Shown here: positions 218-12,962 of the stretch, piece by piece
Position numbering within the stretch: the first letter of the stretch is position 1
Layout of the letters: each line of letters begins with the position of its first letter
Source of the DNA: Bacteroidota bacterium
GTDB lineage: Bacteria; Zhuqueibacterota; JdFR-76; DREG01
NCBI GenBank assembly: GCA_030624545.1
Contig: JAUXJX010000012.1
Location: forward strand, 1 to 12,962
Reading direction: 5' to 3'
Length of the DNA stretch: 12,962 nt
Translations under genes and position numbers: made by a program
Notes under the pieces: model-generated
The model's input: only the letters and a program-made list of their open reading frames with translations
Told to the model about the DNA's origin: nothing
Database searches by the model: none

Positions 218-1345
218 TCAATAGCCAAAGATGTAATCCTGCCGGAAGACGGCATCTCCCCTGGAGCGATCGATGGGGCCAAAATCGCGCCATCTGCGCA
301 TTTTGGATATGATGCATTTTTCAACCGATGGATTGTTCAAAGTGGAGGCAAACACCTTGGCGTCGGATATGCTGCCATCGGGGCGGATGACAAAACGGAT
401 GGACACCTTGCCCTTCAGATTCGGGTCTCGCCGCAGCGCACGCTGGTAGCAATATTCAATGGCCGAGCGATGGGAGTTGATGACTTTCATTACATCTTCG
501 GGAAGGCGGCCGGCGGTTCTGCCTTCTTCCGCCTCGGCGTCCGAATTGGTGAAAACCAGGCTTCCGCTCTTCTTGCCGAAATTCGAAGACTTCGCCTCGG
601 TCAGTGCGGCCACGCCTATGCCGCCGCCATGATCGGTTATCCTGGAGCCGCGGGCGCCGGCGCTTTTTATTTCCGATGCGCTACCCGCGCTCTTAATACC
701 GTCTATTTCCGAGAGCACCTTATCCAGGTTTGACGAAGCGCCATTCCCTGACTCACCCAGCAGGTCTACTACGCCCTCGCCCTGGGCAGCGCTCCCGGTG
801 CCGCTCAGCAGAGCGAGAAGGCCTTTGCTGCTGGCTGCGGCGGCGATATCCGCCGTGCTCCTCGTGTAGGCCTCTCGTCTGGCACGCGCCTCCGCTGCCG
901 GCGCTTCAGAACTGGGAACTTCCGCCATTTTCTCTTCCGGCGTCTTCTTTTCCTCTTCCTCCTTTACCGTGCCCCCCGTCGGGTCAGCGTCCTCATTGTC
1001 GTCTTTCTTCGGCTTAATTTTGGTTACGAGGGCGGACTCTGGTTCTTTTTCATAGATGAAGTTAGCATAGTGCTCCTGGATCTTCTTCATGGTCTCGAGG
1101 GACATTTCAAACGGAATGCTGGAAACATAATAAGCCAGGATCGCATGGAAGAAAAACGTAATCAAAAAGATCGACGCAAAACGGCGGTCAACATTCTCGC
1201 CCAGGCGTTTCTTATACCTTGAGGGATCAATCACAAATTCAACATTTGCGCCAAACCCGCCGTTGCCTGGAAGAGGGACTTTTGCTTCCCTCGATTTCAA
1301 GTTCTTGCCGCTTTCTTCCTGAAGATTTGCCTGTTTCATATCCAT
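218..1345 (-). CDS. TonB-like protein with AgmX/PglI-type C-terminal domain
   Basis: This is a single-pass inner-membrane protein of about 375 residues, likely to span the periplasm and transmit force from the neighbouring TolQ/ExbD motor. A cytoplasmic N-terminus of about 57 residues is followed by one membrane segment (about 57-76, ASIFLITFFFHAILAYYV). A long acidic, Lys/Glu- and Ala/Gly/Ser-rich linker (about 100-280) includes a KGLLALLSG motif and a LDKVLSEIDGIKS segment. The C-terminal domain (about 283-375) has the order seen in AgmX/PglI-type TonB-like domains: AIEYCYQRAL, LKGKVSIRFVIRPDGSI, VEKCIISKMRRW and a final aromatic strand. Two cysteines (near 299 and 344) could form a disulfide. 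A TTG at 1348 is in frame, but the ATG at 1345 is preferred because GAG sits seven bases before it. The gene is 43 bases after the second ExbD gene. Closest functional models are Myxococcus GltJ/GltG; equivalence is inferred. Confidence 0.88.
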   Translation of the reverse strand: MDMKQANLQEESGKNLKSREAKVPLPGNGGFGANVEFVIDPSRYKKRLGENVDRRFASIFLITFFFHAILAYYVSSIPFEMSLETMKKIQEHYANFIYEKEPESALVTKIKPKKDDNEDADPTGGTVKEEEEKKTPEEKMAEVPSSEAPAAEARARREAYTRSTADIAAAASSKGLLALLSGTGSAAQGEGVVDLLGESGNGASSNLDKVLSEIDGIKSAGSASEIKSAGARGSRITDHGGGIGVAALTEAKSSNFGKKSGSLVFTNSDAEAEEGRTAGRLPEDVMKVINSHRSAIEYCYQRALRRDPNLKGKVSIRFVIRPDGSISDAKVFASTLNNPSVEKCIISKMRRWRDFGPIDRSRGDAVFRQDYIFGY

Positions 1346-1388
1346 CAATCAACTCGGGATTTTGTTAGACTCTAGCCAGTGATTCCTT

Positions 1389-1883
1389 CTAGCTTTCATT
1401 CTGATAAACGAGGAATCTCATATTGGGGTATTTGGATCTCCCGCACGTAGCCATTACTTTCACAAGGGCCCGGTAGGGCAGCTCCTTGTCGCCCTGGATT
1501 GTAATCGACCCGGAAAAACGTTGGCCGTATTTCTCCTGCATCTTCTCCGCCTCGTTGGCATATCTCAATAATTCGTTTTGAAGAGCCGGAATGATAAACT
1601 GTTGCGAAGCCAGCAGGTCATTTACCTTCATGACCGGCTTGTCATTCAGGATCAGCCAATCCTTTGATATGGCCAGATCCAGGGACATCTCGGGCACCTT
1701 TTCCATTGTGGAATTCGGCAAAGTGAGGTCATCAGATGGGTTCACCAGGTGTCCCTCCGTCGAATAAACCTTCAGCAGAAAGAGCAGGATAATGGTGAAC
1801 ATGTCCATCATTGAATTCAGGTTTAGCTTCAATGATCCGGGATCTGTGATATGTCTTTTCGAACGAGTTGGAATAAACGCCAT
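1389..1883 (-). CDS. ExbD/TolR-family protein 2 (canonical Asp retained)
   Basis: A 164-residue biopolymer-transport protein expected to form the stator rod with the TolQ-like channel. It has a short basic cytoplasmic N-terminus (MAFIPTRSKRH) and a single membrane helix (about 24-40, SMMDMFTIILLFLLK). D27 matches the proton-carrying aspartate of ExbD (D25) and TolR (D23). The periplasmic part follows (STEGHLVNPSDDLTLP and onward) and ends MRFLVYQNES. A predicted helix at about 100-120 (LQNELLRYANEAEKMQEKYG) is inserted in the periplasmic domain. The ATG has a clear GGAG site six bases upstream. It sits 34 bases after the first ExbD gene. A paired arrangement with two ExbD-like subunits recalls AglQ and AglS, whose membrane aspartates are needed for motility in Myxococcus. 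Confidence 0.9.
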   Translation of the reverse strand: MAFIPTRSKRHITDPGSLKLNLNSMMDMFTIILLFLLKVYSTEGHLVNPSDDLTLPNSTMEKVPEMSLDLAISKDWLILNDKPVMKVNDLLASQQFIIPALQNELLRYANEAEKMQEKYGQRFSGSITIQGDKELPYRALVKVMATCGRSKYPNMRFLVYQNES

Positions 1884-1917
1884 TTCAATCTCCGAATTAT
1901 TCGCTGATAGTCGGCAA

Positions 1918-2451
1918 TCACATCACCGTGGCACTTAGGGAAACAGTGGGAAAAAGCGGCAGCTTTTCCTGATCCGACATGTATGCCCTGGCAGCATCCA
2001 TGGTGCTGACCACAGTCTGGTATTCTATTTCGGGCTCGGCCACGATGATGACTTGATCCACGTCTTTGAAAACTCCGGTGGCTTTCTTTTTGATCTTATA
2101 CAGATTTTTGTTCAGCTCTGCAAAGTCATATTCGCCGGTATCGAGCTTTGGAATTGTCGGACCCTGGCCACTACGGCCGCGGGCGACCGCCAGGCTGCTG
2201 GCAAGATAGAACCCTTCGTCTGTAATGGTCACGGACAAATCCAGTTTCTTTTCTGTCTCTTTTGGCATATTTAGCATTGCATCGGCGCTAATGGCGGGCG
2301 GAAGGTTGATCTCAATCATGCCAAGCTTGATAAATTGCGCCGAAGTCAGAAGCAATGGGATCAAAACCACCATCAAGTTCATGATCGGAGTCAGATCTGG
2401 ATCTGCATCCTGTTTGGGCCGAAGAGTGCGCTGGGAAGGTCTGAACGCCAT
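1918..2451 (-). CDS. ExbD/TolR-family protein 1 (Asn at the usual Asp position)
   Basis: A 177-residue ExbD-like protein with a basic N-terminus, one membrane helix (about 22-40) and a periplasmic domain ending LPLFPTVSLSATVM. The helix region reads DLTPIMNLMVVLIPLLLTSA. Aligned with ExbD (VTPLVDVML), the protonatable aspartate is replaced by asparagine N25, encoded by AAC at 2379-2377. D19 lies six residues earlier, at the membrane edge, and is not an obvious substitute. The periplasmic part has a loop around 90-105 (ARGRSGQGPTIPKLDTGEY) and a conserved-looking VDQVIIVAEPEIEYQTVVSTMDAA segment typical of ExbD folds. The start ATG shares one base with the TAA stop of the TolQ gene (TAATG), so translation is probably coupled. 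It likely pairs with the second ExbD protein in one stator. Confidence 0.9.
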   Translation of the reverse strand: MAFRPSQRTLRPKQDADPDLTPIMNLMVVLIPLLLTSAQFIKLGMIEINLPPAISADAMLNMPKETEKKLDLSVTITDEGFYLASSLAVARGRSGQGPTIPKLDTGEYDFAELNKNLYKIKKKATGVFKDVDQVIIVAEPEIEYQTVVSTMDAARAYMSDQEKLPLFPTVSLSATVM

Positions 2452-3110
2452 TATTGATTCCCCGTAAGTAGGTTAATCAGTTTCACGGAATGCTCGTCGA
2501 TTTCGTCGATAATGCGCATAGTTTTATTATGCACGAAGTTATAGACGAGAATTGCCGGTACGGCAACCGACAATCCCACCAACGTGGTGTTCATAGCGGT
2601 CGATATGCCCGCAGCGAGCAGACGGGATTTTTCCGCAGCGTCGATGCCGGGTGCGGAGACAGAATTAAACGCGAGGATCAATCCGTATATCGTCCCCATC
2701 AGTCCGAGCAGGGTCGCGACATTGCCAATCATTGCGAGATAACCGGTCCGTTCCTGCAATTTCGGAATGGTCTCCAAAGTGCCTTCGTCAACTGCATTCT
2801 GGGCGGTGCGAAAATCTACGCTGCCTTTTTGCCCGATGCGAGACAGGCAGGTGTGTACCACATATGGCAGTGCTTTGTCTTTGGCGCTGGCCGCCAACCC
2901 CAAAGCATCCTTGAATTTGCCCGCCGTCAGCAAGGCCCGTATGTCGCCCATAAATTTGCCGGCGTTGATGTTGGACCGGATGGCAATAAAATAGTATCTT
3001 TCAATGGCCACGGCCAACATGAATACTGCCGTCATGAGCAGCAGCCACATAAAAAACCAGCCGGGGGCTCCAACCTTAAATGCCTGAAAGATTTGCATCA
3101 GCTGTCCCAT
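2451..3110 (-). CDS. MotA/TolQ/ExbB-family proton channel
   Basis: A 219-residue inner-membrane protein of the family whose pentamers surround two ExbD/TolR-type helices and convert proton flow into movement. Three membrane segments are visible: about 17-38 (WFFMWLLLMTAVFMLAVAIE), 124-148 (YLAMIGNVATLLGLMGTIYG) and 168-190 (GISTAMNTTLVGLSVAVPAI). The GLMGTIYGLILAF stretch and the Thr-containing AMNTTLVGLSVAVPA stretch are family hallmarks. The cytoplasmic loop between segments one and two is the usual size. The start is secured by a perfect AGGAGG four bases before the ATG. It is the first gene after a 187-base leader and overlaps the first ExbD gene by one base. AglR, TolQ and ExbB are all relatives; two ExbD partners make AglR the best functional comparison. 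Confidence 0.94.
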   Translation of the reverse strand: MGQLMQIFQAFKVGAPGWFFMWLLLMTAVFMLAVAIERYYFIAIRSNINAGKFMGDIRALLTAGKFKDALGLAASAKDKALPYVVHTCLSRIGQKGSVDFRTAQNAVDEGTLETIPKLQERTGYLAMIGNVATLLGLMGTIYGLILAFNSVSAPGIDAAEKSRLLAAGISTAMNTTLVGLSVAVPAILVYNFVHNKTMRIIDEIDEHSVKLINLLTGNQ

Positions 3111-3297
3111 TTTACCTCCTACGAATTATTGTTATCAAATGGCAATTCCATCTTTCTCTAATTATCGGCAGGCAATTCCGGATATATAAGCCGATCATTT
3201 AATAATTACTCTCTGCGCTCTCTGCGACCTCTGCGGTAAATAATTAAGGTTAAATGCTCTTTACTCTTTGGTTGAAATCTCGCTACTATCAGTCCGC
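3111..3297 (-). promoter_or_regulatory. Leader between the envelope block and the motor block
   Basis: These 187 bases carry no gene. The largest gap around it is otherwise about 180 bases, so this may be where the motor genes acquire separate control. It holds the GCAGAG repeat element (3199-3247), two copies of GGCAATTCC exactly 30 bases apart (3141 and 3171), AT-rich stretches that include TATATA and GATAAT boxes on the minus strand, and the strong AGGAGG of the TolQ-like gene. No -35/-10 pair with good spacing and sequence stands out, so a promoter here is an inference from spacing and composition. Confidence 0.3.
3199..3247. repeat. Three 9-bp GCAGAG-type tandem units flanked by AT-rich inverted arms
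   Basis: On the plus strand three adjacent nonamers read TCTCTGCGC, TCTCTGCGA and CCTCTGCGG (3210-3236), which is GCAGAG at a nine-base period on the minus strand. They are bracketed by an imperfect inverted repeat: TTAATAATTAC (3199-3209) and GTAAATAATTAA (3236-3247). From memory, similar CGCAGAG-periodic short elements are scattered through intergenic regions of many bacterial genomes; I cannot verify this here. It lies within the untranslated leader of the motor genes. Confidence 0.6.
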
Positions 3298-3642
3298 TCA
3301 GTTGCGATCCCGAGCTATCAGCTTCTGCACATCGCGGATTTTGGTGAAACTACGTTTATCTCCCTTCATGCTGAATAGCTCCTCCGGCAGCATTTTCAAT
3401 TCCCGGTCAAAATCCCTGATGATAAATTCAACCTGTTCCAATTCCGGCTTAAGCCTCCTCGGCAGAATCGATACGCTCGGTTTTTCAACGGTTGCATCCA
3501 GGTGGAGGGCGTCTAGCTGAATTTCTTCAACATCCGCTTTCTTAGCCTGTGTTTTGTCCTGTTTTTCTACCTTCTCTTTGTCCTGGGAAAAACCGGGCAC
3601 TGCTATAACCATGAGCGCAATGAAGAAAAGCAGTCTTTTCAT
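3298..3642 (-). CDS. Small secreted protein of unknown function
   Basis: A 114-residue protein with a clear signal peptide (MKRLLFFIALMVIAVPGFSQ, cleavage probably near residue 20), so it should act in the periplasm or be exported. A Lys/Glu/Gln-rich linker (21-40) is followed by a segment that looks like a small conserved module: about 42-62 (LDATVEKPSVSILPRR) leading to KPELEQVEFIIRDFDREL (65-82). The end is basic. An upstream in-frame start at 3705 would bury the signal peptide and overlap the TPR gene, so the ATG at 3642 is chosen; its AAGGA site overlaps the TAA stop of the TPR gene (TAAGGA), ten bases away. I do not recognise a named family. From memory, short proteins with an E-[KR]-P-x-V-x-x-I-x-x-R pattern occur beside TolQ/TPR/AgmX clusters, suggesting an accessory part of the same machine. 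Confidence 0.85.
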   Translation of the reverse strand: MKRLLFFIALMVIAVPGFSQDKEKVEKQDKTQAKKADVEEIQLDALHLDATVEKPSVSILPRRLKPELEQVEFIIRDFDRELKMLPEELFSMKGDKRSFTKIRDVQKLIARDRN

Positions 3643-3652
3643 ATCCAAGTCC

Positions 3653-6600
3653 TTAATGTTCCGGTACAAAATTTCTATTGAAGATAAAATCTTCCATGGT
3701 GGCAATTCCGCCGAGTTCTTTCTTTAACAATTCCTCCTGGTTCTCCACCAGGGCAGCATGATTGATAATCTTCATCTCCAGTAATGGCTGAATGCCATGG
3801 CCGCTGCCATCCGTGTCTTCCAGCTCAATGGCGAGCAGATTTTTACCCGATTTCAGGAACAATGTCAGATCGGTTTCGAAAACACTGCCCCAGCCCAAGG
3901 ATTCGTCATTTTCTTCAAAAACCTTTATTCCATTTAAGAATACTCTCACATTGTCGTCGGCATTCACCTTCAATACTGCCTTCAGCGGAACGTCCACGAG
4001 ATCTATTTCCTTGCGCAACGCATAAACACGTGGCATGCCCTGGTGACCGGCATTTCCAGAGGTCGAGTCCACTGCGGTGGAGTCAATACCGAGGCTAGCC
4101 ATTACAACATCCTGGGCGAGAAGAATCGGATCTTCGCCGGATGAAAAATCTTCCAGGACAGGAGCAGGCTGCCAGTCGGTTGCGTCGAATTCAGGCAAGG
4201 TCCAGGCTGCGCCCCGAACATTAGTGGCATACAACCAGGATTCATCCGGAATGATTACCAAATCCTCCACCGGCAGCTCAAACTCGGCAGCATACGTCTG
4301 CGGATCCAATTCAACCAGCAGATTCACGATCTGCACGAAGTTGGTCGAGCTGAAGCTATACTGTTTTTTCAGATTGTATGTGCTTTCACACAATTCCAGC
4401 GCATTTTCCTGCAGATAGGTTTCGAGATCCGTAAACGTAAATATGGCATCCTCGTAAACCATTTGCGGCGAATTCTGATTCTTCACCCAGAATTGGTCTC
4501 TCATCTGTTTTGCATCTGCGGCAGATTTCTTGAAATTGCCAGCAAGCTCCACCGATGTCTGAGTTAGATCAGAAAAAAGGGAATTGGCAATTGTGTTGCC
4601 GAACGGCTGCATCAGAATGCTTTCAATAGAGATCTTATAACTCTCATTCATATTGGTCGCGTAGTTCTTGCTCAGCTCGACAATGTTGACCAAGATGCCG
4701 GCCAGATCCAGGGTGTTTTCCTGTTCCTCTTCCGTTCCCTCGGTCATGATCTGTCTGTAGCGGTCATATCTGCTGAGATAAGTTCCGGTCGCATCGAGGC
4801 AAAGTTGCTTGTAGCGGCTCGGCAGGACGCTCATCACCTCAAACAGCCGCGACCGTGATTGCGCGACCCAGCGATTCTCTAGCTGAAGCGAATCCGCTTC
4901 CTGGAGACTTCGGATATAAGCCTGGGTGACCTCCTGCACAACCGGAAATACCGCCTTGGAAAGAACCTGGCTGCGATATTCCAATTCGGTGACATCGTCC
5001 AGGCCCCCCGGGATGGGTGCGTTCAAGAGTGGATCGATTGAACCGGCATTGATGTCTGCAACGTTGTATAGCATCTCGGAGATCTTCTCGCCGGTTTTAG
5101 CGATCCAGCGTGCCGCAACACGCAGGGTACTGTCTTCTTCGACGACCCGAATGGATGAATCAGCAGGCGTCGACGTCTCAGTAGGTTGATACGAATCGCG
5201 CAGCGCCAGCAGGGCCTTGTAGCCCGACTTATATGATCCAAATGCTCGATTATAGAGTTGGGCGGATGTGTTGTTGAGATTTTTTTGATGGAAGATCTTC
5301 TCCGTTTCGCTCAATTCGGGTAACTCCTGGCTGCTCCACGTATCCGCGAAGTCCTCATAGACCTGACCGATTTGGAATGTGGCAGTATACAGCCGATTCG
5401 TGCCATAGGCTGCCACATCGGTATATTGCCTTGTCAATTGCTGCAGCAGCGCCTTTTTCTCCGCTTGTGCGGATGCCCTGTTTGCCAGGGTAAACTTGAT
5501 CTTATCGAATTCTTTGTATTGCTCTTCGGTTTTGGCAAACAGGGCCTCGGCCGCGTAAAAATCGTTGGTTTGGAGATTTTTTTGCCCGAGCTCATCATTT
5601 CTGGCCACGGCCTTGTCAAATTCTGCCAGCGCGTCGGCAACTCGACCTTTATTCAGGAAATAATGCCCGCGCATAAAGTGGGTTTGTACGCTTCTGGGAG
5701 AATCGGGAAAACGGGCCGCGAATTCACCGTAGATTTCATTGGCCTGGTCAAACTCATCCAGCTTGAGATGGAATCCTGCCAGGCCATAGAACATATCCTC
5801 CACGTCCGGCGTCTGCGGATAATGATCCACATAGGTGCGGTTAACCCGAATCGCATCACGCCACGCTTCAGCTTTTGCATAAAAATGGCCTGCATTGTAC
5901 AGCGCATCTTGCGCACGGGCGGAATCCGGATGAATTGAGGCCAACCTTTCGTATGTCGCCGCCGCCTGTTGATGGTCGCCGGTCTCCCCATAGTCCAAAG
6001 CAAGGTTATTTACCGCCTTTAGATAATGCTCGGACCCGGGGAAATTGTCGATCAATTCCTGATATGCTTCGATGGCTTGAGCCAATTCCTGGGCAAGATC
6101 GAATTGCAGGCCCGCCTGGAATATGGCTTTATCGGCAAATGGGGCGTCCGGCACCTCGGCATACACTTCTCTGAATTTCAGTGCGGCCGCTATATGGTTG
6201 TTCTCCCCTGCCAGCGCTTCGGCATTTAGGTAAACAGATTCGGCCAGGCGGCCATTAACCTTAGCTCTGATTTCCGGCGGAAGCTCCTCGTCCTGCTGCA
6301 TCAGTTTGGCGGCCATCTCAGCATTGGCAAAATCCTTCTTGCCGAAATAACTTTCCAGCGCGGCAAATTGGACCTCATGAGCAAAGGGGCTGTCTGAAAA
6401 ACGAGCCGAAAGAGTATTGAAGTAACGCAAAGCCGGATCATAGTCTTTTCTGTTATAATACAGCGTTCCGACATTTCGCAAGACCTCGGCGGTTTCTACT
6501 TCATGTGGAAAAAGCTTGATGAAATTGTCATAAGCCTGAATCAGGAACTCCTCGGCTTGAGACACAGGCTTCACCTCAAGAGACGCGACCGAACTCGAAT

Positions 6601-8251
6601 CCGATAATGCATCCGCCTCCATTATATCAGCTATATCTGCGAGCGAAAGGGACCTGTCATTCTCTGCTGGTTGATCCGCAACGACAGCCAATTCTGCGAG
6701 TTCGCGAGCCAACACGACCGCGTTCTCGGCGGCTATTCTGCCGAAATCCGTCTGCAGGTAATCATTACAGACTTTGAGATACTCCCTGTAAGCCTCTTCC
6801 TTCTTATGAAGCTTTGTATCCAGGATAAGCGCCAAATCCCAGTGAATGGCATAAGCGCTTGTATCATACGGAAATTGCTCCAAATATTTTTTCGCCTCCT
6901 GAACAGATCGAACATAGTAGCTGGCATCCAATTTCTCTTCGCCAAGGCGAATGAGAAGATTGACGTTGTCACGCTGTGCCACCTCAGATTTTTCCGTGGC
7001 TTGCTGCAAGGCCATAAGCCGGTCGTACGGCGCCAAATCCAGCTCTTCAATCCTCTTCTGCCATTCGCCATCAGGTCGGTAGGTATCAAAGAGCTTTTGC
7101 CGGGCTAAGTAGATCTCCTCATTGTCTTTGAGCCCTTTGGCGCACAGGATGATCTTCTCCTGGAATTCCGCCGCATTTAGATCGAGCGGGTAGCGCGCCA
7201 ACAATGCCTCATATGAAAACATTGCCTGCACGAACTTCTCATCGTTTTCCCGATACACGTCGCCCATCTTGGTGAGTATTTCCGCGCCGTAGGCCGGCCG
7301 TCCCATTTCGTCCAAATAGGCCAGGGCCGCCGGAAGGCCGCCATGATCTCTGAAACAAACGCCAATATACTCCAGGGCTTCTTCCCGTAAAGTTGGATTG
7401 GTGAATTCCCCGTCTTTGTCAATCTCCTGATATTTTTCAATATCCTCAACGAGCAAGGTAAACATCTCAATCGCAGAACTGTATTCCTCCCGCAGATAGT
7501 GTGACCAGCCCAGTTTATATAATGCCTCATCATACCGGGGTGTGGTTCGGTAATCCATGACGCGGGCAAAATAGTGAATTGCTTTGTCCAGATCGCGGTG
7601 AATCGGATCAAAATAATATTCGCCAAGGCGTATCAAGGCTTCCGGTGTGTAGCGGCTATCGGAATGGTCGTCGATCACCATCTCATAATATGCAAGCGCC
7701 TCTTCTTCCTGGAAATTCTCTTCGAGGGTAAAGCCTAATTGGTAGAGGGCATCATCCCTCAGACCGCTGTTGGGAAAATCCGCAACAACCAACTTATATG
7801 TATCGATTGCGTCGCTAAAATCCGGTTTGGGCTCCTCCGGCGGTTCCGGTCGCTCGCCCGCATCGAATTTGTCGAATTCCTTCTCGTAGTCAGTCATCCG
7901 TGCGAACAGATCGTCTTTCTCTTTTGTGTAGGAGAACTCTGCCAGCCTAAACAAAATCTTATCCATATAGGGATTAGCCGGATTGATTGCGTATATTTTC
8001 TCGCCGTCTTGAATTCCCATGTTCTGAAGCAGTTGGTTCTCCGTCTTTTCCGCATTGACTTCATTGCGATAGAATTCCCGGAATCGAGCCAGCTCGTCGA
8101 GAGAAAACTTCTGCAACAGTGAATCCACGCTCATAACCAGGCCTGACTCGTTCTGGCCCTGACCAAAAACAACGGGGGAGCGAAAAACGGTCAAAAGAAA
8201 GGCCAGCGCCATTGGGAACGAAACAACTGTAAGCTTGAGGTGTCTTCTCAT
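3653..8251 (-). CDS. Giant periplasmic TPR protein with C-terminal beta-sandwich-like domain
   Basis: About 1,532 residues. The N-terminus (MRRHLKLTVV, then a hydrophobic run to VVFG near 30) is a signal peptide. TPR-type helix pairs occur at about 145-360 (for example LRDDALYQLGFTLEE, YDEALYKLGWSHYLREEYSSA), 430-520 and 565-890, many with the P-x-S/D-x-x-A spacing of YbgF/GltE-like repeats. A helical region (900-1330) contains a FQIGQVYEDFADTW stretch like those in large gliding-type TPR proteins. The C-terminus (about 1336-1499) looks like a beta-sandwich: WLYATNVRGAAWTLPEFD, VLKVNADDNVRVFLNG, GKNLLAIELED. An in-frame TTG at 8263 has GGATGG six bases upstream and would add four residues; both starts keep the signal peptide. 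It probably scaffolds the periplasmic or outer-membrane part of the machine, comparable in role to GltD/GltI; that is inference. Confidence 0.9.
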   Translation of the reverse strand: MRRHLKLTVVSFPMALAFLLTVFRSPVVFGQGQNESGLVMSVDSLLQKFSLDELARFREFYRNEVNAEKTENQLLQNMGIQDGEKIYAINPANPYMDKILFRLAEFSYTKEKDDLFARMTDYEKEFDKFDAGERPEPPEEPKPDFSDAIDTYKLVVADFPNSGLRDDALYQLGFTLEENFQEEEALAYYEMVIDDHSDSRYTPEALIRLGEYYFDPIHRDLDKAIHYFARVMDYRTTPRYDEALYKLGWSHYLREEYSSAIEMFTLLVEDIEKYQEIDKDGEFTNPTLREEALEYIGVCFRDHGGLPAALAYLDEMGRPAYGAEILTKMGDVYRENDEKFVQAMFSYEALLARYPLDLNAAEFQEKIILCAKGLKDNEEIYLARQKLFDTYRPDGEWQKRIEELDLAPYDRLMALQQATEKSEVAQRDNVNLLIRLGEEKLDASYYVRSVQEAKKYLEQFPYDTSAYAIHWDLALILDTKLHKKEEAYREYLKVCNDYLQTDFGRIAAENAVVLARELAELAVVADQPAENDRSLSLADIADIMEADALSDSSSVASLEVKPVSQAEEFLIQAYDNFIKLFPHEVETAEVLRNVGTLYYNRKDYDPALRYFNTLSARFSDSPFAHEVQFAALESYFGKKDFANAEMAAKLMQQDEELPPEIRAKVNGRLAESVYLNAEALAGENNHIAAALKFREVYAEVPDAPFADKAIFQAGLQFDLAQELAQAIEAYQELIDNFPGSEHYLKAVNNLALDYGETGDHQQAAATYERLASIHPDSARAQDALYNAGHFYAKAEAWRDAIRVNRTYVDHYPQTPDVEDMFYGLAGFHLKLDEFDQANEIYGEFAARFPDSPRSVQTHFMRGHYFLNKGRVADALAEFDKAVARNDELGQKNLQTNDFYAAEALFAKTEEQYKEFDKIKFTLANRASAQAEKKALLQQLTRQYTDVAAYGTNRLYTATFQIGQVYEDFADTWSSQELPELSETEKIFHQKNLNNTSAQLYNRAFGSYKSGYKALLALRDSYQPTETSTPADSSIRVVEEDSTLRVAARWIAKTGEKISEMLYNVADINAGSIDPLLNAPIPGGLDDVTELEYRSQVLSKAVFPVVQEVTQAYIRSLQEADSLQLENRWVAQSRSRLFEVMSVLPSRYKQLCLDATGTYLSRYDRYRQIMTEGTEEEQENTLDLAGILVNIVELSKNYATNMNESYKISIESILMQPFGNTIANSLFSDLTQTSVELAGNFKKSAADAKQMRDQFWVKNQNSPQMVYEDAIFTFTDLETYLQENALELCESTYNLKKQYSFSSTNFVQIVNLLVELDPQTYAAEFELPVEDLVIIPDESWLYATNVRGAAWTLPEFDATDWQPAPVLEDFSSGEDPILLAQDVVMASLGIDSTAVDSTSGNAGHQGMPRVYALRKEIDLVDVPLKAVLKVNADDNVRVFLNGIKVFEENDESLGWGSVFETDLTLFLKSGKNLLAIELEDTDGSGHGIQPLLEMKIINHAALVENQEELLKKELGGIATMEDFIFNRNFVPEH

Positions 8252-8302
8252 AATTCGTACCAAATCAGACCATCCAAAGAGAAATTCGCATTCCGGTCTT
8301 CC

Positions 8303-11221
8303 CTAATTTTCCTTTTCGGGTTTTTCCGGCTCCTGATTCACAGGAGTGCTTGCGTCAGGTTGCTGCGGCCCTTCTTGAGAACCCACATCCGTTCCGGCAA
8401 AACTGTTGATAAAATACTCCTCGGCAAAATAGCGGTCCCTCTCAGCTTTGAGCTCGTCGAGTCTTGCCTTCTTCTCCTGCCGTTCAAGATCTGTTATTTC
8501 TTCATCAAGGAAGGCTATTTTTACCTGGAGCTGGCTTTCCTTCTCTCTGAACGCATCGTTAATCGCACTCATGTTATTATTGTAGATTTGTATCCCCTGG
8601 CTGATCTCCTGCATGCGGACAAAACCTTCGTCACTCATTCCGAAGCCCGAGAAATCGGCCCAGGCGGTATAGTCCGTCTCAAGCTCTTCCGTCCCGCTTT
8701 CAGCCAATCTCACATTAAATGATTCCAGACGTCCGAACAGATTTTCAAGCTCCCGGGAACGCAGCTCCAGAAGGGCCAAAGCCTCGTGATCCCCGTTCTT
8801 TTCAGCTTTTGCTATCAGGCCCGCGAGTTCTCTCTTATTTCTTCTTAAGGCTTGCTGCTCCAGTTGAACCTGGTTACCAAGGCGGCTGAAGGAATAATTC
8901 TGAGATTTGAGGCCGCTCTCTCTTTTGGCCACCGGATAATCGGTCATGATATCGACTTCACCTGTGGATCTTAGCTTGTTGAGCCTTGCCCAATTCAACG
9001 CAAGTCTCCTGCTGATTTTGCGCAACGATTTGCTGATTTCCGGTCTGCCCAGCGCTGCGGTCAACGAATCATAATCGGCGGCGCTTCCGAGCAGGGCCAA
9101 TAATTTGAGTTCCTCGCTGTCAAGCTCCTTGAGCAATTGCATACCTGGCCCGCCCCAATCGGAGAAAGATTCCGTCGTGTAATCCAAATCCGTCTTGAGG
9201 TTTTTGATGTGCTCAAATGCCAGCAGGTCGCCTTTCGCCACTGCTTTCTCTTCCAATTCCTCCAGTTCTATTTGAATCTGGTTGATTCGCCTATGCTCGG
9301 AATTTAGGCCGTCATCAATCTCCAGCGCCTTTTTCGCATTTTCTACGTAGCGCACTCTTCGCGTCGATTCCTCAACGTTACCCAAAAGAATATTGCAATG
9401 CGCGGCCAGCATCATCGCCTCATAAACATAGCTGGAGTTTAGCTGCTGCCAATACAATCCATCCAAATCCTCTGAGGCGGCTTGCAGCAGTCCCAGACGA
9501 AATTTTGTCCAGGCCTTCGTTAGCAAAACCAAATCGAAATTGTTGAAATGGGGATCAATTCTTTCGAGGGCGCCTAGAGCATTCTCCAGATCATCCTCAT
9601 TGTAATAGAGCATTCCCAATTTTAGCAGGGAGTAGTTCCTGATTGTCCTGGCTTGCCCATCAAGGGCAGAAGATCCTTCGGAACTCAAATTGGATAATAT
9701 GGATTTTGCCTCCTGGCGCCGGTCCAGGTTAACATAGGCCACTGCCTGTAAATATTGGGCGGCACCATAGTAAAGAGAGCGATCATCAACTTTTCCCACG
9801 AACTGTAGAGCCTTGTCAAGATCATTTGCGCTATGCGCCACGTATCCCGCGAATAGCATGGCCTTGTTGACCAATTCGTCTCCGTCTGCTGAGGGGAATT
9901 TGCTCAATTCCTTAGCATAGCTAAAGAGCTCACGATGGCGGCCGAATGTTTCGCTAATAAGCATCAAGCGATAATAGGCAATTGGGGCGTATTCAGACCT
10001 GGGGGCTTCATTCACAACATCCCGAAAGACCGCTTTTGCCCGCGAAAATTGCTGCTGCATCCACAGAGATTCGGCCAGGTAGAACTTGAAATCTTCCATC
10101 CTTTTGTAAGGATAGAACTTGATAATGTCGCTGAACAATAGTCCGGCAATTTCAAAATTTGCAGCATCATATTCAACCACCGCCCGGTTGGCATCCTCAT
10201 CAAACATTCTTTTGACCTGGTGATCTCTGCCAGTTTCGATCAGCTTTTGCTTTATTAGCTCTGCCTGTTTGGCCTTGGTCTGAATCCAAAAAATCCGGCC
10301 AGCCATCCATGAATCAAAATAGGCCTGCATATCATCACTGTCATGACGGAACTGGGCTTCATGATATTCCAATGCAACAAGAGCCTCTAAAGGCACGGCT
10401 TGAAACAGCTTCTCCTTAACTTCGCGAATCCCGAGATGAATATTCAAGTCCTCGAGTGGAAAGTTACGCTCCAGTGCGTCCAACTCACGAAGCGTTTGAA
10501 TTATACTGGTGGTTTCTCGAACATAGTCGTCAATTAAAGGGTCCTTTCTATCGTCTGCTATCTCTCCCAATTCCCGGACAATTCCCTGCCTCACGTGGTC
10601 AACTTCATCCTGGATATCCGGGTCTTGAGGTGAGTCGGAGCCGAGGCGATAAAGGCTTCTTACGACATCGAGTATTCTTTCAAGTTCGTGATTATATTCA
10701 TACAGCATCAGTTCAGCCAATTGCGGAGAAAGGGAACCGGGCTTATCCAAATCACTCTCTTCGATAATCGCTCTGAGGCGAAGTTTCAGATTATGGAGTC
10801 GTTCTTTCGTCTCTTCGTCGGATGAGGCCGTGGGGTTCTGCTGCAATTTGATAAGTTCGTCATGAGCTCTGATCACTCCCAGAAGCTCTTCCCTATATTC
10901 TGAAATCAGCTCCCTTTCCAATCCATAGATTTCGTCCAGATCGGCCTGGGTAAGTCCAGATCCCTCATCTTTTCTCGCCTTCAGTTCATTTTTCACGGAT
11001 TCCAGCGCGTACTGCAGATATTTCTCTTGAATGAGAATATGCTCCAGAATATCCGCGGTTTTATTTTCCATGATCTGCTCGTGACGGGATTTCATCTCTT
11101 TGATGAGCCGTTCTTGACGGGCATCTTGAGACAGGCCCGGGGTTGCTCTGATAAGGAGACTATATGTCAAAGGCAGAAGCGTAAATAAGAGAAGGTAGGT
11201 TCCGATTCGAGTTCTGGGCAT
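8303..11221 (-). CDS. Periplasmic coiled-coil/TPR protein
   Basis: A 972-residue protein beginning MPRTRIGTYLLLFTLLPL with a signal peptide ending near LSQ (about 32). Residues 34-125 and 140-260 are highly charged, coiled-coil-like helices. TPR-type repeats span about 345-620 (AVVEYDAANFEIAGLLFSD, YLAESLWMQQQFSRAKAVFR, LKLGMLYYNEDDLENALGAL). More coiled coil follows at 640-680, 780-840 and 885-935, and the tail (945-972) is Pro/Glu/Gln-rich. A TTG at 11269 is in frame but has no suitably placed binding site and would bury the signal peptide behind 16 hydrophilic residues; the ATG at 11221 has GGA eight bases upstream. It ends 51 bases before the giant TPR gene. The layout suggests an elongated periplasmic scaffold or linker. 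No enzyme motif is visible. Confidence 0.88.
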   Translation of the reverse strand: MPRTRIGTYLLLFTLLPLTYSLLIRATPGLSQDARQERLIKEMKSRHEQIMENKTADILEHILIQEKYLQYALESVKNELKARKDEGSGLTQADLDEIYGLERELISEYREELLGVIRAHDELIKLQQNPTASSDEETKERLHNLKLRLRAIIEESDLDKPGSLSPQLAELMLYEYNHELERILDVVRSLYRLGSDSPQDPDIQDEVDHVRQGIVRELGEIADDRKDPLIDDYVRETTSIIQTLRELDALERNFPLEDLNIHLGIREVKEKLFQAVPLEALVALEYHEAQFRHDSDDMQAYFDSWMAGRIFWIQTKAKQAELIKQKLIETGRDHQVKRMFDEDANRAVVEYDAANFEIAGLLFSDIIKFYPYKRMEDFKFYLAESLWMQQQFSRAKAVFRDVVNEAPRSEYAPIAYYRLMLISETFGRHRELFSYAKELSKFPSADGDELVNKAMLFAGYVAHSANDLDKALQFVGKVDDRSLYYGAAQYLQAVAYVNLDRRQEAKSILSNLSSEGSSALDGQARTIRNYSLLKLGMLYYNEDDLENALGALERIDPHFNNFDLVLLTKAWTKFRLGLLQAASEDLDGLYWQQLNSSYVYEAMMLAAHCNILLGNVEESTRRVRYVENAKKALEIDDGLNSEHRRINQIQIELEELEEKAVAKGDLLAFEHIKNLKTDLDYTTESFSDWGGPGMQLLKELDSEELKLLALLGSAADYDSLTAALGRPEISKSLRKISRRLALNWARLNKLRSTGEVDIMTDYPVAKRESGLKSQNYSFSRLGNQVQLEQQALRRNKRELAGLIAKAEKNGDHEALALLELRSRELENLFGRLESFNVRLAESGTEELETDYTAWADFSGFGMSDEGFVRMQEISQGIQIYNNNMSAINDAFREKESQLQVKIAFLDEEITDLERQEKKARLDELKAERDRYFAEEYFINSFAGTDVGSQEGPQQPDASTPVNQEPEKPEKEN

Positions 11222-11277
11222 CTTAAGATTCCAATTTGCTTCGCTTTCGGTCCGGTCGACTGTAGTCAAAAATCGAA

Positions 11278-11283
11278 ATTATA
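11278..11283 (-). promoter_or_regulatory. Possible -10 box upstream of the coiled-coil/TPR gene
   Basis: The minus strand reads TATAAT exactly at 11283-11278, about 57 bases before the ATG at 11221, inside the 178-base gap after the barrel gene. At 16-18 base spacing no convincing TTGACA-like -35 box is present (GATTTC at 17). It could drive a transcript starting near 11271. In an AT-rich stretch a chance match is quite possible. Confidence 0.28.
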
Positions 11284-11399
11284 CTTCCTTCATTATCGGC
11301 GAAATCGATACAATAGATTAGTTAGGTTCCAGATTAGCAAAGGGTTTATCCTTTGTTATTGAAGACGAGACGCCCCGGATCGCAAATCGATGGTAGAGG

Positions 11400-12554
11400 C
11401 TAAGGCTTTCTTTCTTTTTTCTTACCATCCCCCGCAACGCGCAGGCGCCCTGCTTCCTTTTCACCTTTGAGGCGCTCGGCCACTACTTTTTTCAACTCCT
11501 TCTCGGAATTGTCATTTTCCTGCATTTCTCGAACGAGTTGCTCAAATAGATCTCGCCGAGTTACGACCTTCCCGTTGGCGAGCTCATTGTCGTAAATCCG
11601 ATGCAATAACGATGGAATAATTTCAAACTTTAGTCCAAGGTTGACTCTCCAACCGGAGTAGCTGCCCGGCATTTCCTCCGGAGTCGGGTCAATGAAGCCA
11701 TATTCAGTTTCGTCGGAGTCAGATACCAGGCGGACATCCACGGCAAGATCAAATTGCCATCTGGGAGAAATTCTGTAAGAAAGTCCGGGGGTTAGATAAA
11801 GATAATTCTCCCTGGAGTAGGCCGTGGGAGCTGGCTGCTTGATGAAGTAATTTCCGTTCAGTTCCAAAGCCAGGCCCAGCCTTTCGAAGGGATATCGAAG
11901 TCCGAGGCCATAAGTGAATTCAGACGCGACGCCGGTATTTGACAAGGTGTCCGAAGATAATTCCGTCAGTGTTTTTCCCGCATCGTTATGGGAGAGAAAA
12001 CCCAGGTTAAGATGCAGGTTAAAGGACTCATCAGGGAACAACGCATCCCTGGCGTAGCTGGCGAGGCCGGCGATCCCGATTTCGAGGGTTCCCGCGGAAT
12101 AGGGCTCCAGAACGACGTTGTGGGTGCCGCCAAGCGGAAGCCGCGTCGAAAGAAGGGCTCCATATTTCAGTCTGCTGCCCGGAGAACCCATAGAACCGAA
12201 TTTCAATTTGAGGAACAAGTCATCCGGGAGATTGTAACCTTTTTCGCCTCGGTTTGTATCCTGGTAAACAATGGGCAACAATGACAGTTCGAAGCGGTTC
12301 GTTAGTCCGTAATTTAATGCGAAAGAAGCTTGGACATTCCAGTAAGCGTTCAAAAAATACTGGGGCTGGAATTTCCCCATATCACCAAAAAATCGAGAAT
12401 GAAAGTACGAATGCAAATTCCCTTTTGACAAAGTTCTGGCGGAGTGAACATACATCAAGCCACGCCCACCGGCATGATACTGGGCATTACCGAGGGAAAC
12501 GCTAAGTAAAGTGGTCAGTACTACACATGTGATAGATAATCTAAATCGTTTCAT
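11400..12554 (-). CDS. Outer-membrane beta-barrel protein with charged C-terminal tail
   Basis: A 384-residue protein with a signal peptide (MKRFRLSITCVVLTTLLSVSLGNA, cleavage near 24). Alternating-pattern amphipathic strands run from about 30 to 315: GGRGLMYVHSARTLSKGNLH, NVQASFALNYGLTNRFELSL, LKYGALLSTRLPLGG, YGLGLRYPFERLGLALELNG, YLYLTPGLSYRISPRWQFDL, GWRVNLGLKFEI. Aromatic residues near strand ends fit an outer-membrane barrel. The chain then continues for about 69 residues (11400-11609) as a hydrophilic helix-rich tail ending GKKKERKP, which is unusual because most barrels end in a final aromatic strand. The ATG follows AAAGGA at good spacing. As the first gene of the proposed machine after the ankyrin gene, it may be the outer-membrane anchor, in the role of GltA/GltB. 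No family name is certain. Confidence 0.85.
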   Translation of the reverse strand: MKRFRLSITCVVLTTLLSVSLGNAQYHAGGRGLMYVHSARTLSKGNLHSYFHSRFFGDMGKFQPQYFLNAYWNVQASFALNYGLTNRFELSLLPIVYQDTNRGEKGYNLPDDLFLKLKFGSMGSPGSRLKYGALLSTRLPLGGTHNVVLEPYSAGTLEIGIAGLASYARDALFPDESFNLHLNLGFLSHNDAGKTLTELSSDTLSNTGVASEFTYGLGLRYPFERLGLALELNGNYFIKQPAPTAYSRENYLYLTPGLSYRISPRWQFDLAVDVRLVSDSDETEYGFIDPTPEEMPGSYSGWRVNLGLKFEIIPSLLHRIYDNELANGKVVTRRDLFEQLVREMQENDNSEKELKKVVAERLKGEKEAGRLRVAGDGKKKERKP

Positions 12555-12577: not shown

Positions 12578-12616
12578 ATGACAAGCCCCGGTATTTTCAA
12601 CCAGGGCTATAGTCAT
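12578..12616 (-). terminator. Imperfect hairpin between the ankyrin gene and the barrel gene
   Basis: The minus strand has ATGACTATAGCCCTGGT, a seven-base loop and ACCGGGGCTTGTCAT. These pair as ATGAC/GTCAT, AGCCC/GGGCT-like and GGT/ACC blocks with one mismatch and a small internal loop. It sits 25 bases after the ankyrin stop codon. Only a short T run (ATTTTG) follows, so it is a weak terminator at best; it may instead attenuate read-through or stabilise the transcript end. Confidence 0.4.
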
Positions 12617-12640
12617 CCCCAAAATCAACTAGGAGCAGCG

Positions 12641-12962
12641 CTATTCATTTTCGACTGCAACATCAAGCAATCTTGTAATAGTCTTGCTGTCCCGCCTCTT
12701 TGCTAGAGTGGAAGCCGTTTCGCCGTCGAGGTTTTGCAGATCCACTTCTGCGCCTTGGTCCAACAAGGTTTCGACGACCGCAACATAACCGTTTCTTATT
12801 CCCAGCATCAATGCCGTATCACCGTAATTGTTCGTGGAGTTTACATCAGCACCGCTATCCAACAGAAGTCCGGCCATTGAGGTGTTGCCATTGCTTGCCG
12901 CCAACAGAAGCGCTGTGTCGCCGTCATTGTTCCTGGCATTCACATCGGCCCCGGTCTCGAGG
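12641..12962 (-). CDS. Ankyrin-repeat protein, C-terminal part only (cut by window edge)
   Basis: The frame is open to the right edge of the window and ends with TAG at 12641, giving about 107 residues of the C-terminus. Three ankyrin units with an exact 33-residue period are visible: GADVNARNNDGDTALLLAAS, GADVNSTNNYGDTALMLGIR and GAEVDLQNLDGETASTLAKR, each followed by a second helix ending in LLLDS, LLDQ or LLDV. The chain finishes VAVENE. The internal GTG at 12943 lies within a repeat and is not the start. Ankyrin repeats bind other proteins; the partner is unknown. The gene is 86 bases upstream of the barrel gene on the same strand, separated by a terminator-like hairpin, so membership of the same operon is uncertain. 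Confidence 0.88.
   Translation of the reverse strand, partial: LETGADVNARNNDGDTALLLAASNGNTSMAGLLLDSGADVNSTNNYGDTALMLGIRNGYVAVVETLLDQGAEVDLQNLDGETASTLAKRRDSKTITRLLDVAVENE

What the first reader, a model, noticed from the sequence alone, without database searches (positions are those of the whole stretch)
218..12554. Compact Agl-Glt-like trans-envelope machine in one strand-uniform cluster
Seen: eight consecutive minus-strand genes encode an outer-membrane barrel, two very large secreted TPR proteins, a small secreted protein, one TolQ-type channel, two ExbD-type subunits and a TonB-like protein with an AgmX/PglI-type end. Known: Myxococcus gliding and Nfs spore-coat systems use one TolQ-like (AglR) plus two ExbD-like (AglQ, AglS) proteins with TonB-like (GltG/GltJ), TPR and barrel partners. 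Inference: this is a reduced, self-contained relative of that machine. No Ras-like switch (MglA), TolB or Pal is in the window, so gliding is not established; polysaccharide handling or envelope maintenance fits as well.
Basis: partly seen in the sequence, partly recalled or inferred. Interest (0 to 1): 0.75.

Follow-up and report, generated by a model that had tools for sequence, protein, structure and literature searches.

The report
Proton-driven envelope machine, gliding-system core
A row of genes in an uncultured bacterium encodes a probable proton-powered machine spanning the cell envelope; it is a relative of the core of the myxobacterial gliding and spore-coat machines, most searched related genomes keep it, often next to their ATP synthase genes, and what it moves is unknown.

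Summary
In detail: eight minus-strand genes, barrel, two large secreted TPR proteins, a small secreted protein, one TolQ, two ExbD and a TonB/GltG-like protein. The last seven form a conserved operon: 34 of 35 fetched relatives show all seven in one order and strand, the 35th being cut by its contig. Profiles match a Microbulbifer 'core complex' in register for GltG, TolQ, both ExbDs and the larger TPR protein; trees join them apart from Tol and Ton. So the Agl-Glt reading is supported at the level of the ancestral core complex described in 2011 (PMC3169522), not of gliding. The barrel is not part of the conserved unit: absent in 30 of 30 relatives whose contig reaches upstream, although a distant barrel heads the sister operon in 14 of 14 loci. 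New details: the first ExbD has Asn (120 of 120 listed relatives) where the second keeps the proton-binding Asp; the larger TPR protein ends in a glycosidase-type sugar-binding fold not found in the sister system; the operon follows ATP-synthase genes in 16 of 30 loci. Most likely a proton-driven glycan-handling machine; no function was measured.

The parts
218..1348 (-). TonB/GltG-like transducer: one N-terminal membrane helix (by eye), variable periplasmic part, AgmX/PglI C-terminal domain
   Evidence: NF033768 87.1 bits (cut-off 40), NF033760 GltG 120.9 bits over residues 30-354; profile of 36 family-I sequences, window included, hits Microbulbifer GltG at 91 bits
1389..1883 (-). ExbD-type subunit 2 (keeps the proton-binding Asp, D27)
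   Evidence: PF02472 46.4 bits; clade with Microbulbifer second ExbD 100/99; Asp in 35 of 35 family-I ExbD2 rows, 2 of 2 family-II rows and Microbulbifer
1918..2451 (-). ExbD-type subunit 1 (Asn, N25, in place of the Asp)
   Evidence: PF02472 51.8 bits; clade with Microbulbifer first ExbD 99/93; Asn in 120 of 120 listed relatives out of 506 found
2451..3110 (-). TolQ/AglR-type proton channel subunit
   Evidence: PF01618 81.9 bits; clade with Microbulbifer core-complex TolQ 98/96, apart from E. coli TolQ/ExbB and four other own TolQ
3298..3642 (-). small secreted protein with a conserved VEKPxVxIxPKR...RSFxxEL core
   Evidence: signal peptide by eye; found in 24 of 41 loci with the window protein alone, in 35 of 35 family-I loci with a profile; profile match to the sister family's small protein, 95.3%
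3653..8251 (-). large secreted TPR protein ('TPR1536'), in the place of GltD; C-terminal galactose-binding-like beta-sandwich at about 3761-4276
   Evidence: TIGR02795 127 bits; 100 bits and 788 aligned columns to Microbulbifer g977; C-terminal fold
8303..11221 (-). second large secreted TPR protein ('TPR988'), first gene of the conserved operon
   Evidence: TPR_6/YbgF repeats; profile match to the sister family's TPR protein 99.9% and to Microbulbifer g706 83.3%
11400..12554 (-). predicted outer-membrane beta-barrel with a long C-terminal helix; loosely attached part, seen at this place in this genome only
   Evidence: PF13557 32.5 bits; AlphaFold model with 12 strands and helix 315-380, mean pLDDT 71, Foldseek best match FapF 3.8e-9, TM 0.46; relatives in 79 of 82 genomes, elsewhere

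Best explanation
A member of the Agl-Glt/Nfs kind in its ancestral 'core complex' form. Inferred mechanism: a TolQ pentamer around an ExbD1-ExbD2 pair takes up protons through the single Asp of ExbD2 and turns or tilts the pair; the membrane helix of the TonB/GltG-like protein is docked on this motor and passes the force through the periplasm, by its C-terminal AgmX/PglI domain, to the two large TPR proteins on the outer-membrane side; the sugar-binding-type domain at the end of the larger TPR protein holds a glycan (peptidoglycan, surface polysaccharide or lipopolysaccharide), which is moved or kept in place. In this genome a barrel gene stands at the head of the unit and may anchor it. Shown: gene content, conserved order, family relations, the Asn/Asp asymmetry, the predicted fold. 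Inferred: stoichiometry, force path, glycan, envelope role.
Against: No function was measured. One of the 7 fetched exceptions, G055, has the motor but no transducer beside it; G038 was not examined. No GltE-like TPR gene and no counterpart of Microbulbifer g179; TPR988's match to Microbulbifer g706 is weak (83%, 234 columns; by HMM 17 bits, less than the 20 bits to g977). The fold by itself shows no sugar binding, and only 1 of 8 C-terminal stretches passed a Pfam cut-off. The barrel is not conserved at this place. M. xanthus sequences were compared only through NCBIfam models. The profiles were built from the same loci; with the window's proteins alone (41 loci, window included) the loci hit are TPR1536 38, TPR988 37, ExbD2 37, ExbD1 34, TolQ 32, small 24; some true genes were lost there to overlapping frames.
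Confidence: 0.6

Rival explanations
1. It is a true gliding machine of these bacteria, with the missing parts encoded elsewhere.
For: Same core as the Myxococcus machine. The phylum's sister operon has a barrel and a longer transducer; in one of two tested its start resembles an FHA domain, under the cut-off (14.7 against 20.7 bits).
Against: A transducer of either family was found in 80 of 82 genomes, the family-I TPR protein in 61 of 82, often in a housekeeping neighbourhood, unlike a motility island; of the gliding-specific Glt proteins only a tail match to the GltJ model was seen; Luciano et al. hold that the core alone is unlikely to drive motility (PMC3169522, passage). A search for MglA with Pfam Arf was too unspecific to tell.
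Confidence: 0.1
2. It is a divergent Tol-Pal or Ton system.
For: Same protein families; YbgF/CpoB-like TPR repeats.
Against: Separate clades for TolQ and both ExbDs (long branches flagged); no TolB or Pal among the window's proteins; four other TolQ/ExbB loci in the same genome, one of them beside a frame that looks like an outer-membrane receptor and a TonB (by eye); two non-equivalent ExbDs. Whether the own genome has TolB and Pal was not searched.
Confidence: 0.06
3. Envelope maintenance or division machine without glycan transport: the TPR proteins tie the outer membrane to peptidoglycan and the motor relocates them, as Tol-Pal does at the division site.
For: Widely kept, often beside ATP synthase and aspS genes; CpoB/YbgF-type TPR repeats.
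Against: Own genome has other TolQ-type motors; sugar-binding-type domain conserved in the TPR protein.
Confidence: 0.24
4. The barrel is a chance neighbour: a paralogue that landed upstream and has nothing to do with the machine (not exclusive of the readings above).
For: Absent upstream of the operon in 30 of 30 relatives that can be judged; close relatives of the barrel lie on other contigs in the compared lists; own second copy on C274, 53% identical; gap of 178 bp (130 from the alternative start) to the TPR gene.
Against: Same strand; a distant barrel heads the sister operon in 14 of 14 loci.
Confidence: 0.5

Closest known systems
Agl-Glt 'core complex' of unknown function (aglR, Q, S, gltC, D, E, G in one region; Luciano et al. 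2011, PMC3169522), here represented by Microbulbifer L073
   Same: one TolQ, two distinct ExbDs, GltG-type transducer, two large TPR-type proteins in the same order upstream of the motor
   Different: no GltE-like TPR gene (a small secreted protein without TPR stands in its place), no counterpart of the 179-aa gene, larger TPR proteins, a sugar-binding-type C-terminal domain
Myxococcus xanthus gliding machine (AglRQS with GltA-K)
   Same: motor type, GltG-type transducer by NCBIfam model (120.9 bits), TPR proteins
   Different: single gene cluster; the window's transducer matches only positions 312-627 of the 650 of the GltG model; gliding-specific Glt proteins not recognised; the first ExbD lacks the Asp that a review (PMC9389320, passage seen) says is predicted for both AglQ and AglS
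Nfs spore-coat machine of M. xanthus
   Same: same kind of complex, driven by AglRQS, moves glycan (PMC3858216, passages seen)
   Different: Nfs borrows its motor from Agl; here the motor is in the operon; no sporulation is known to me for these bacteria
Sister operon in the same phylum (L071, L072, L102-L113)
   Same: TPR-TPR-small-TolQ-ExbD1-ExbD2-TonB order, Asn/Asp pair
   Different: headed by a barrel in 14 of 14 loci, longer transducer (438-489 aa), no match to the sugar-binding-type domain in 14 of 14

Membership tests
Agl-Glt core complex | one AglR/TolQ-type and two distinct ExbD-type (AglQ, AglS) proteins in one clade with known core complexes | tested here: met
   TolQ clade with Microbulbifer 98/96; ExbD clades 99/93 and 100/99; long branches flagged, midpoint roots, M. 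xanthus not in the tree
Agl-Glt core complex | GltG-type transducer with AgmX/PglI end | tested here: met
   NF033768 over its cut-off; 91 bits to Microbulbifer GltG; the NF033760 equivalog cut-off (650) is not reached, nor by the Microbulbifer protein (53 bits)
Agl-Glt core complex | GltD counterpart | tested here: met
   TPR1536 to Microbulbifer g977, 100 bits, 99.6%, 788 columns; that g977 is GltD is my inference from size, place and Luciano's gene list
Agl-Glt core complex | GltC counterpart | tested here: inconclusive
   TPR988 to Microbulbifer g706 83.3%, 234 columns; 17 bits by HMM against 20 to g977; TPR repeats make such matches easy
Agl-Glt core complex | GltE counterpart | tested here: not met
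   no third TPR gene in the window; the GltE model NF033758 matched Microbulbifer g221 (36.5 bits) and none of the window's proteins at E 0.1
Agl-Glt core complex | all genes in one region, one strand | tested here: met
M. xanthus gliding machine | GltA, B, F, H, I, J, K | tested here: inconclusive
   only NCBIfam models at E 0.1: the GltJ model matched the transducer's tail alone (35.6 bits, cut-off 450); whether models exist for the others was not checked
M. xanthus gliding machine | drives gliding under MglA control | not testable with these tools
   uncultured organism; Pfam Arf search too unspecific
Nfs | moves spore-coat glycan, using the Agl motor | not testable with these tools
   needs experiment
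Tol-Pal | tolB and pal linked to the motor | tested here: not met
   no such family among the window's proteins
Ton (ExbBD-TonB) | one ExbB, one ExbD in an ExbB/ExbD clade, TonB-dependent receptor partner | tested here: not met
   two non-equivalent ExbDs; outside the E. coli ExbB/ExbD branch; no receptor among the window's proteins

The most novel reading that the evidence does not exclude
The machine is an ancestral, vertically kept, perhaps essential glycan-moving motor of this FCB lineage, with an obligate heterodimeric axle in which only one of the two ExbD chains carries the proton-binding acid: a 'single-acid' 5:1:1 motor. If so, a driven step may alternate with an idle one, and gliding and spore-coat machines are late uses of a housekeeping glycan motor set beside ATP synthase.
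Probability: 0.3. Interest if true: 0.75.

Novelty: new variant of a known kind. Interest (0 to 1): 0.55.

Why it matters
The function of the Agl-Glt core complex outside myxobacteria was called unknown in 2011 (PMC3169522), and whether AglQ and AglS form heterodimers was called unknown in 2022 (PMC9389320, passage seen). A version kept by 61 of 82 searched genomes of one phylum, in one operon, with a strict Asn/Asp pair and a sugar-binding-type domain, gives a direct test of both: the make-up of the axle, and the glycan that the machine handles. It would also fit a history in which a general envelope machine came first, and gliding and spore-coat assembly later.

Tried and rejected
tblastn of the sister transducer in plasmids: no match. 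Barrel as a conserved part of the operon: rejected. MglA by Pfam Arf: too unspecific, hits in 82 of 82 genomes and in E. coli. Promoter and terminator scans: 17 against 13.4 expected and 15 against 13.1 expected, nothing above chance. TolB and Pal in the own genome, and a TonB-box in the small protein: not tested. Protein search with the smaller TPR protein reached only 3 proteins.

Literature: searches listed no paper that describes this system in KSB1/Zhuqueibacterota/Calditrichota; the library lacks most subscription journals. The Caldithrix abyssi genome paper (PMC5317091, passages) reports no Bacteroidetes-type gliding machinery; in the Zhuqueibacterota paper (PMC11683472, term search) 'motil', 'gliding' and 'flagell' do not occur; a 2025 paper on periplasmic force transducers (PMC12204202, passages) does not contain 'GltG' or 'AgmX'.

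Weak points of method: the 35 loci are 35 of the 52 non-own transducer matches at E 2.3e-80 or better, picked by me with a preference for longer contigs; the 12 extra sister loci were picked too. The gene choice lost some true genes (the window's own TolQ among them) to overlapping frames; searches use all six frames. One search stopped with an error in its TolQ part after the ExbD parts were done. Translations used in searches start one codon after (8248 against ATG 8251), two codons before (11227 against ATG 11221) and three codons after the listed start (1339 against 1348). Profiles were built from the loci they were then run on.
Full report
WHAT IS THERE. The window is a whole contig (G000:C323) of a draft genome of 2.86 Mb, 77% complete. 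The named nearest proteins are labelled candidate division KSB1, Calditrichaeota, Zhuqueibacterota and Caldithrix, one Bacteroidetes, several just 'bacterium', so the source is an uncultured lineage of that part of the FCB group; the exact phylum name was not established. A ninth frame, with ankyrin repeats, lies upstream.

THE CONSERVED UNIT. An alignment of 28 transducer relatives (A1) matched 80 of 82 genomes searched in the phylum, 49 of 49 among those at least 90% complete and at most 5% contaminated; these matches belong to at least two families. I fetched 40 stretches: 35 of the 52 non-own matches at E 2.3e-80 or better (L033-L067, longer contigs preferred), 3 middling matches (L068-L070) and 2 sister-family ones (L071, L072). 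In the 35, the order TPR988-TPR1536-small-TolQ-ExbD1-ExbD2-TonB, on one strand, shows all seven in 34; L039 lacks TPR988 because its contig begins inside TPR1536, and in some (such as L038 and L048) TPR988 is itself cut by the contig end. L068-L070 have a lone transducer without motor. Because the loci were chosen by the transducer and the profiles were built on them, I also came from the other side: an alignment of the larger TPR protein (A4) matched 61 of 82 genomes, own included, at over 1000 bits. Comparing its list by eye, 53 of the 61 have a transducer match on the same contig. Of the other 8, 7 were fetched: in 6 the contig ends before or inside the transducer gene; in 1 (G055, L129) the motor is there but a frame that looks like a short-chain dehydrogenase stands where the transducer should be. 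G038 was not examined.

THE NEIGHBOURHOOD. 30 of the 35 stretches reach at least 2.6 kb upstream of the first TPR gene; the other 5 (L036, L038, L039, L048, L059) end within about 100 bp. In 10 of the 30 the unit follows atpG-atpD-atpC of an F-type ATP synthase (L033, L035, L037, L042, L047, L050, L055, L058, L060, L064, Pfam for L037). In 6 more it follows genes of a V/A-type ATPase (L045, L049, L053 by Pfam; L051, L054, L056 by weak beta-subunit matches of 45-57 bits and like gene lengths only). In 14 neither was found. aspS was found downstream in 24 of 35; a stricter test, that its stop-to-stop frame begins after the transducer, is passed by 22. A divergent version in G068 (L137) also sits between atpG-atpD-atpC and aspS, with a 289-aa protein without Pfam match in the transducer's place. 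In the window's own genome the ATP synthase contig breaks off inside atpG, and aspS, followed by an inositol-phosphatase-like gene (as in L037; here by eye), begins 494 bp from a contig end; with the 217 bp after the window's transducer this would fit the 676-bp spacing in L037, but the join is not shown. The linkage may reflect descent of a stable neighbourhood rather than shared function.

THE BARREL. A protein search found relatives of the barrel, distant ones included, in 79 of 82 genomes. None lies in the 30 stretches that can be judged, and in the lists no other genome has a barrel match on the operon's contig except G020, where a sister-family barrel lies about 97 kb away; the list is capped at its weak end. 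Of 8 loci fetched around close barrel relatives (L114-L121), Pfam shows a c-di-AMP cyclase gene (cdaA) upstream in the two tested for it: L116, with an SLBB-domain protein and a sugar nucleotidyltransferase in between, and L119, directly; L115 has genes of like length to L116, and others such as L114 differ. The own genome holds a second copy on C274, 53% identical, after a fragment that looks like a nucleotidyltransferase. In the sister operon, however, a distantly related barrel is the first gene in 14 of 14 loci (L071, L072; L102-L113). The model (mean pLDDT 71) has 12 strands and a C-terminal helix of about 65 residues; Foldseek's best matches are FapF, with a COG4313 channel further down. 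So the barrel in the window looks like a late addition that may or may not work with the machine.

WHAT IT IS RELATED TO. Microbulbifer L073 carries, in order, genes of 179, 706, 977, 221 aa, TolQ, two ExbDs and GltG. I take it as a gammaproteobacterial core complex in the sense of Luciano et al. 2011 because of its content and order, a GltE model match on the 221-aa protein (36.5 bits, well under that model's cut-off) and AgmX/GltG model matches on the last. Family-I profiles hit its proteins in register: TonB to GltG 91 bits, TolQ 171, ExbD1 77 on the first ExbD against 13 on the second, ExbD2 97 on the second against 33 on the first, TPR1536 100 on the 977-aa protein; TPR988 gives only 20 bits on the 977-aa and 17 on the 706-aa protein. 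Profile alignment covers 788 columns for TPR1536, and 234 columns at 83% for TPR988 with the 706-aa protein (20% with the 977-aa one). The small protein has no match there, and the 221- and 179-aa genes have none here. In the trees (17 family-I, 2 sister and 8 other TolQ) family I, the sister family and Microbulbifer TolQ form one clade (98/96), apart from E. coli TolQ and ExbB, four other TolQ of the own genome and one other TolQ of G063; the first and the second ExbDs form separate clades (99/93, 100/99), each with its Microbulbifer counterpart. Several branches are long, long-branch joins are flagged, and roots are midpoints.

HOW IT PROBABLY WORKS. Shown by others in Myxococcus: AglR binds GltG in a two-hybrid test, and AglRQS drives both gliding and the movement of spore-coat glycan by Nfs (PMC3169522: abstract, passages, sections 7 and 13; PMC3858216: passages). 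Inferred here: proton uptake by TolQ-ExbD1-ExbD2, force through the TonB/GltG-like protein, output on the TPR proteins at the outer membrane, and a glycan as the thing held. Gliding is less well supported, because a system of this kind was found in nearly all searched genomes and gliding-specific parts were not seen.

NOVELTY. The kind is known. Its spread in this lineage, its neighbourhood, the Asn/Asp pair and the sugar-binding-type domain were not found in print by searches (listings, and passages of the papers named). I call it a new variant of a known kind.

Noticed in passing
G000:C165, C219, C450, C515 (L074, L075, L076, L078): Four further TolQ/ExbB loci in the same genome; by eye C219 has a receptor-like frame upstream and a TonB downstream, C450 and C515 each have two ExbDs, all six ExbDs with Asp.
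   Followed up: partly
L105-L108, L111, L112: In 6 of 12 newly fetched sister operons the first TPR gene is read as two frames of 196-245 aa; two genes or a frameshift was not settled.
   Followed up: no
L137 (G068:C8): A third, divergent version of the operon between ATP synthase and aspS, with a 289-aa protein without Pfam match in the transducer's place.
   Followed up: partly
L129 (G055:C97): Motor and TPR genes but a short-chain-dehydrogenase-like frame (by eye) where the transducer should be.
   Followed up: partly
L116, L119: Close relatives of the barrel lie after a c-di-AMP cyclase gene (cdaA), in L116 with an SLBB-domain protein and a sugar nucleotidyltransferase: a possible polysaccharide link.
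   Followed up: partly
window 3209-3239: A short repeat of the form cgcagag in the 187-bp gap between the small gene and TolQ.
   Followed up: no
window 12584-12961: Ankyrin-repeat frame running off the contig, same strand, with a hairpin-like sequence (12584-12608) between it and the barrel gene; such hairpins are no more frequent in the window than by chance.
   Followed up: no
L043:15202-17532: A neighbouring gene with matches to a type IX secretion-type sorting domain (under its cut-off), a FlgD Ig-like domain and a fibronectin-type domain.
   Followed up: no
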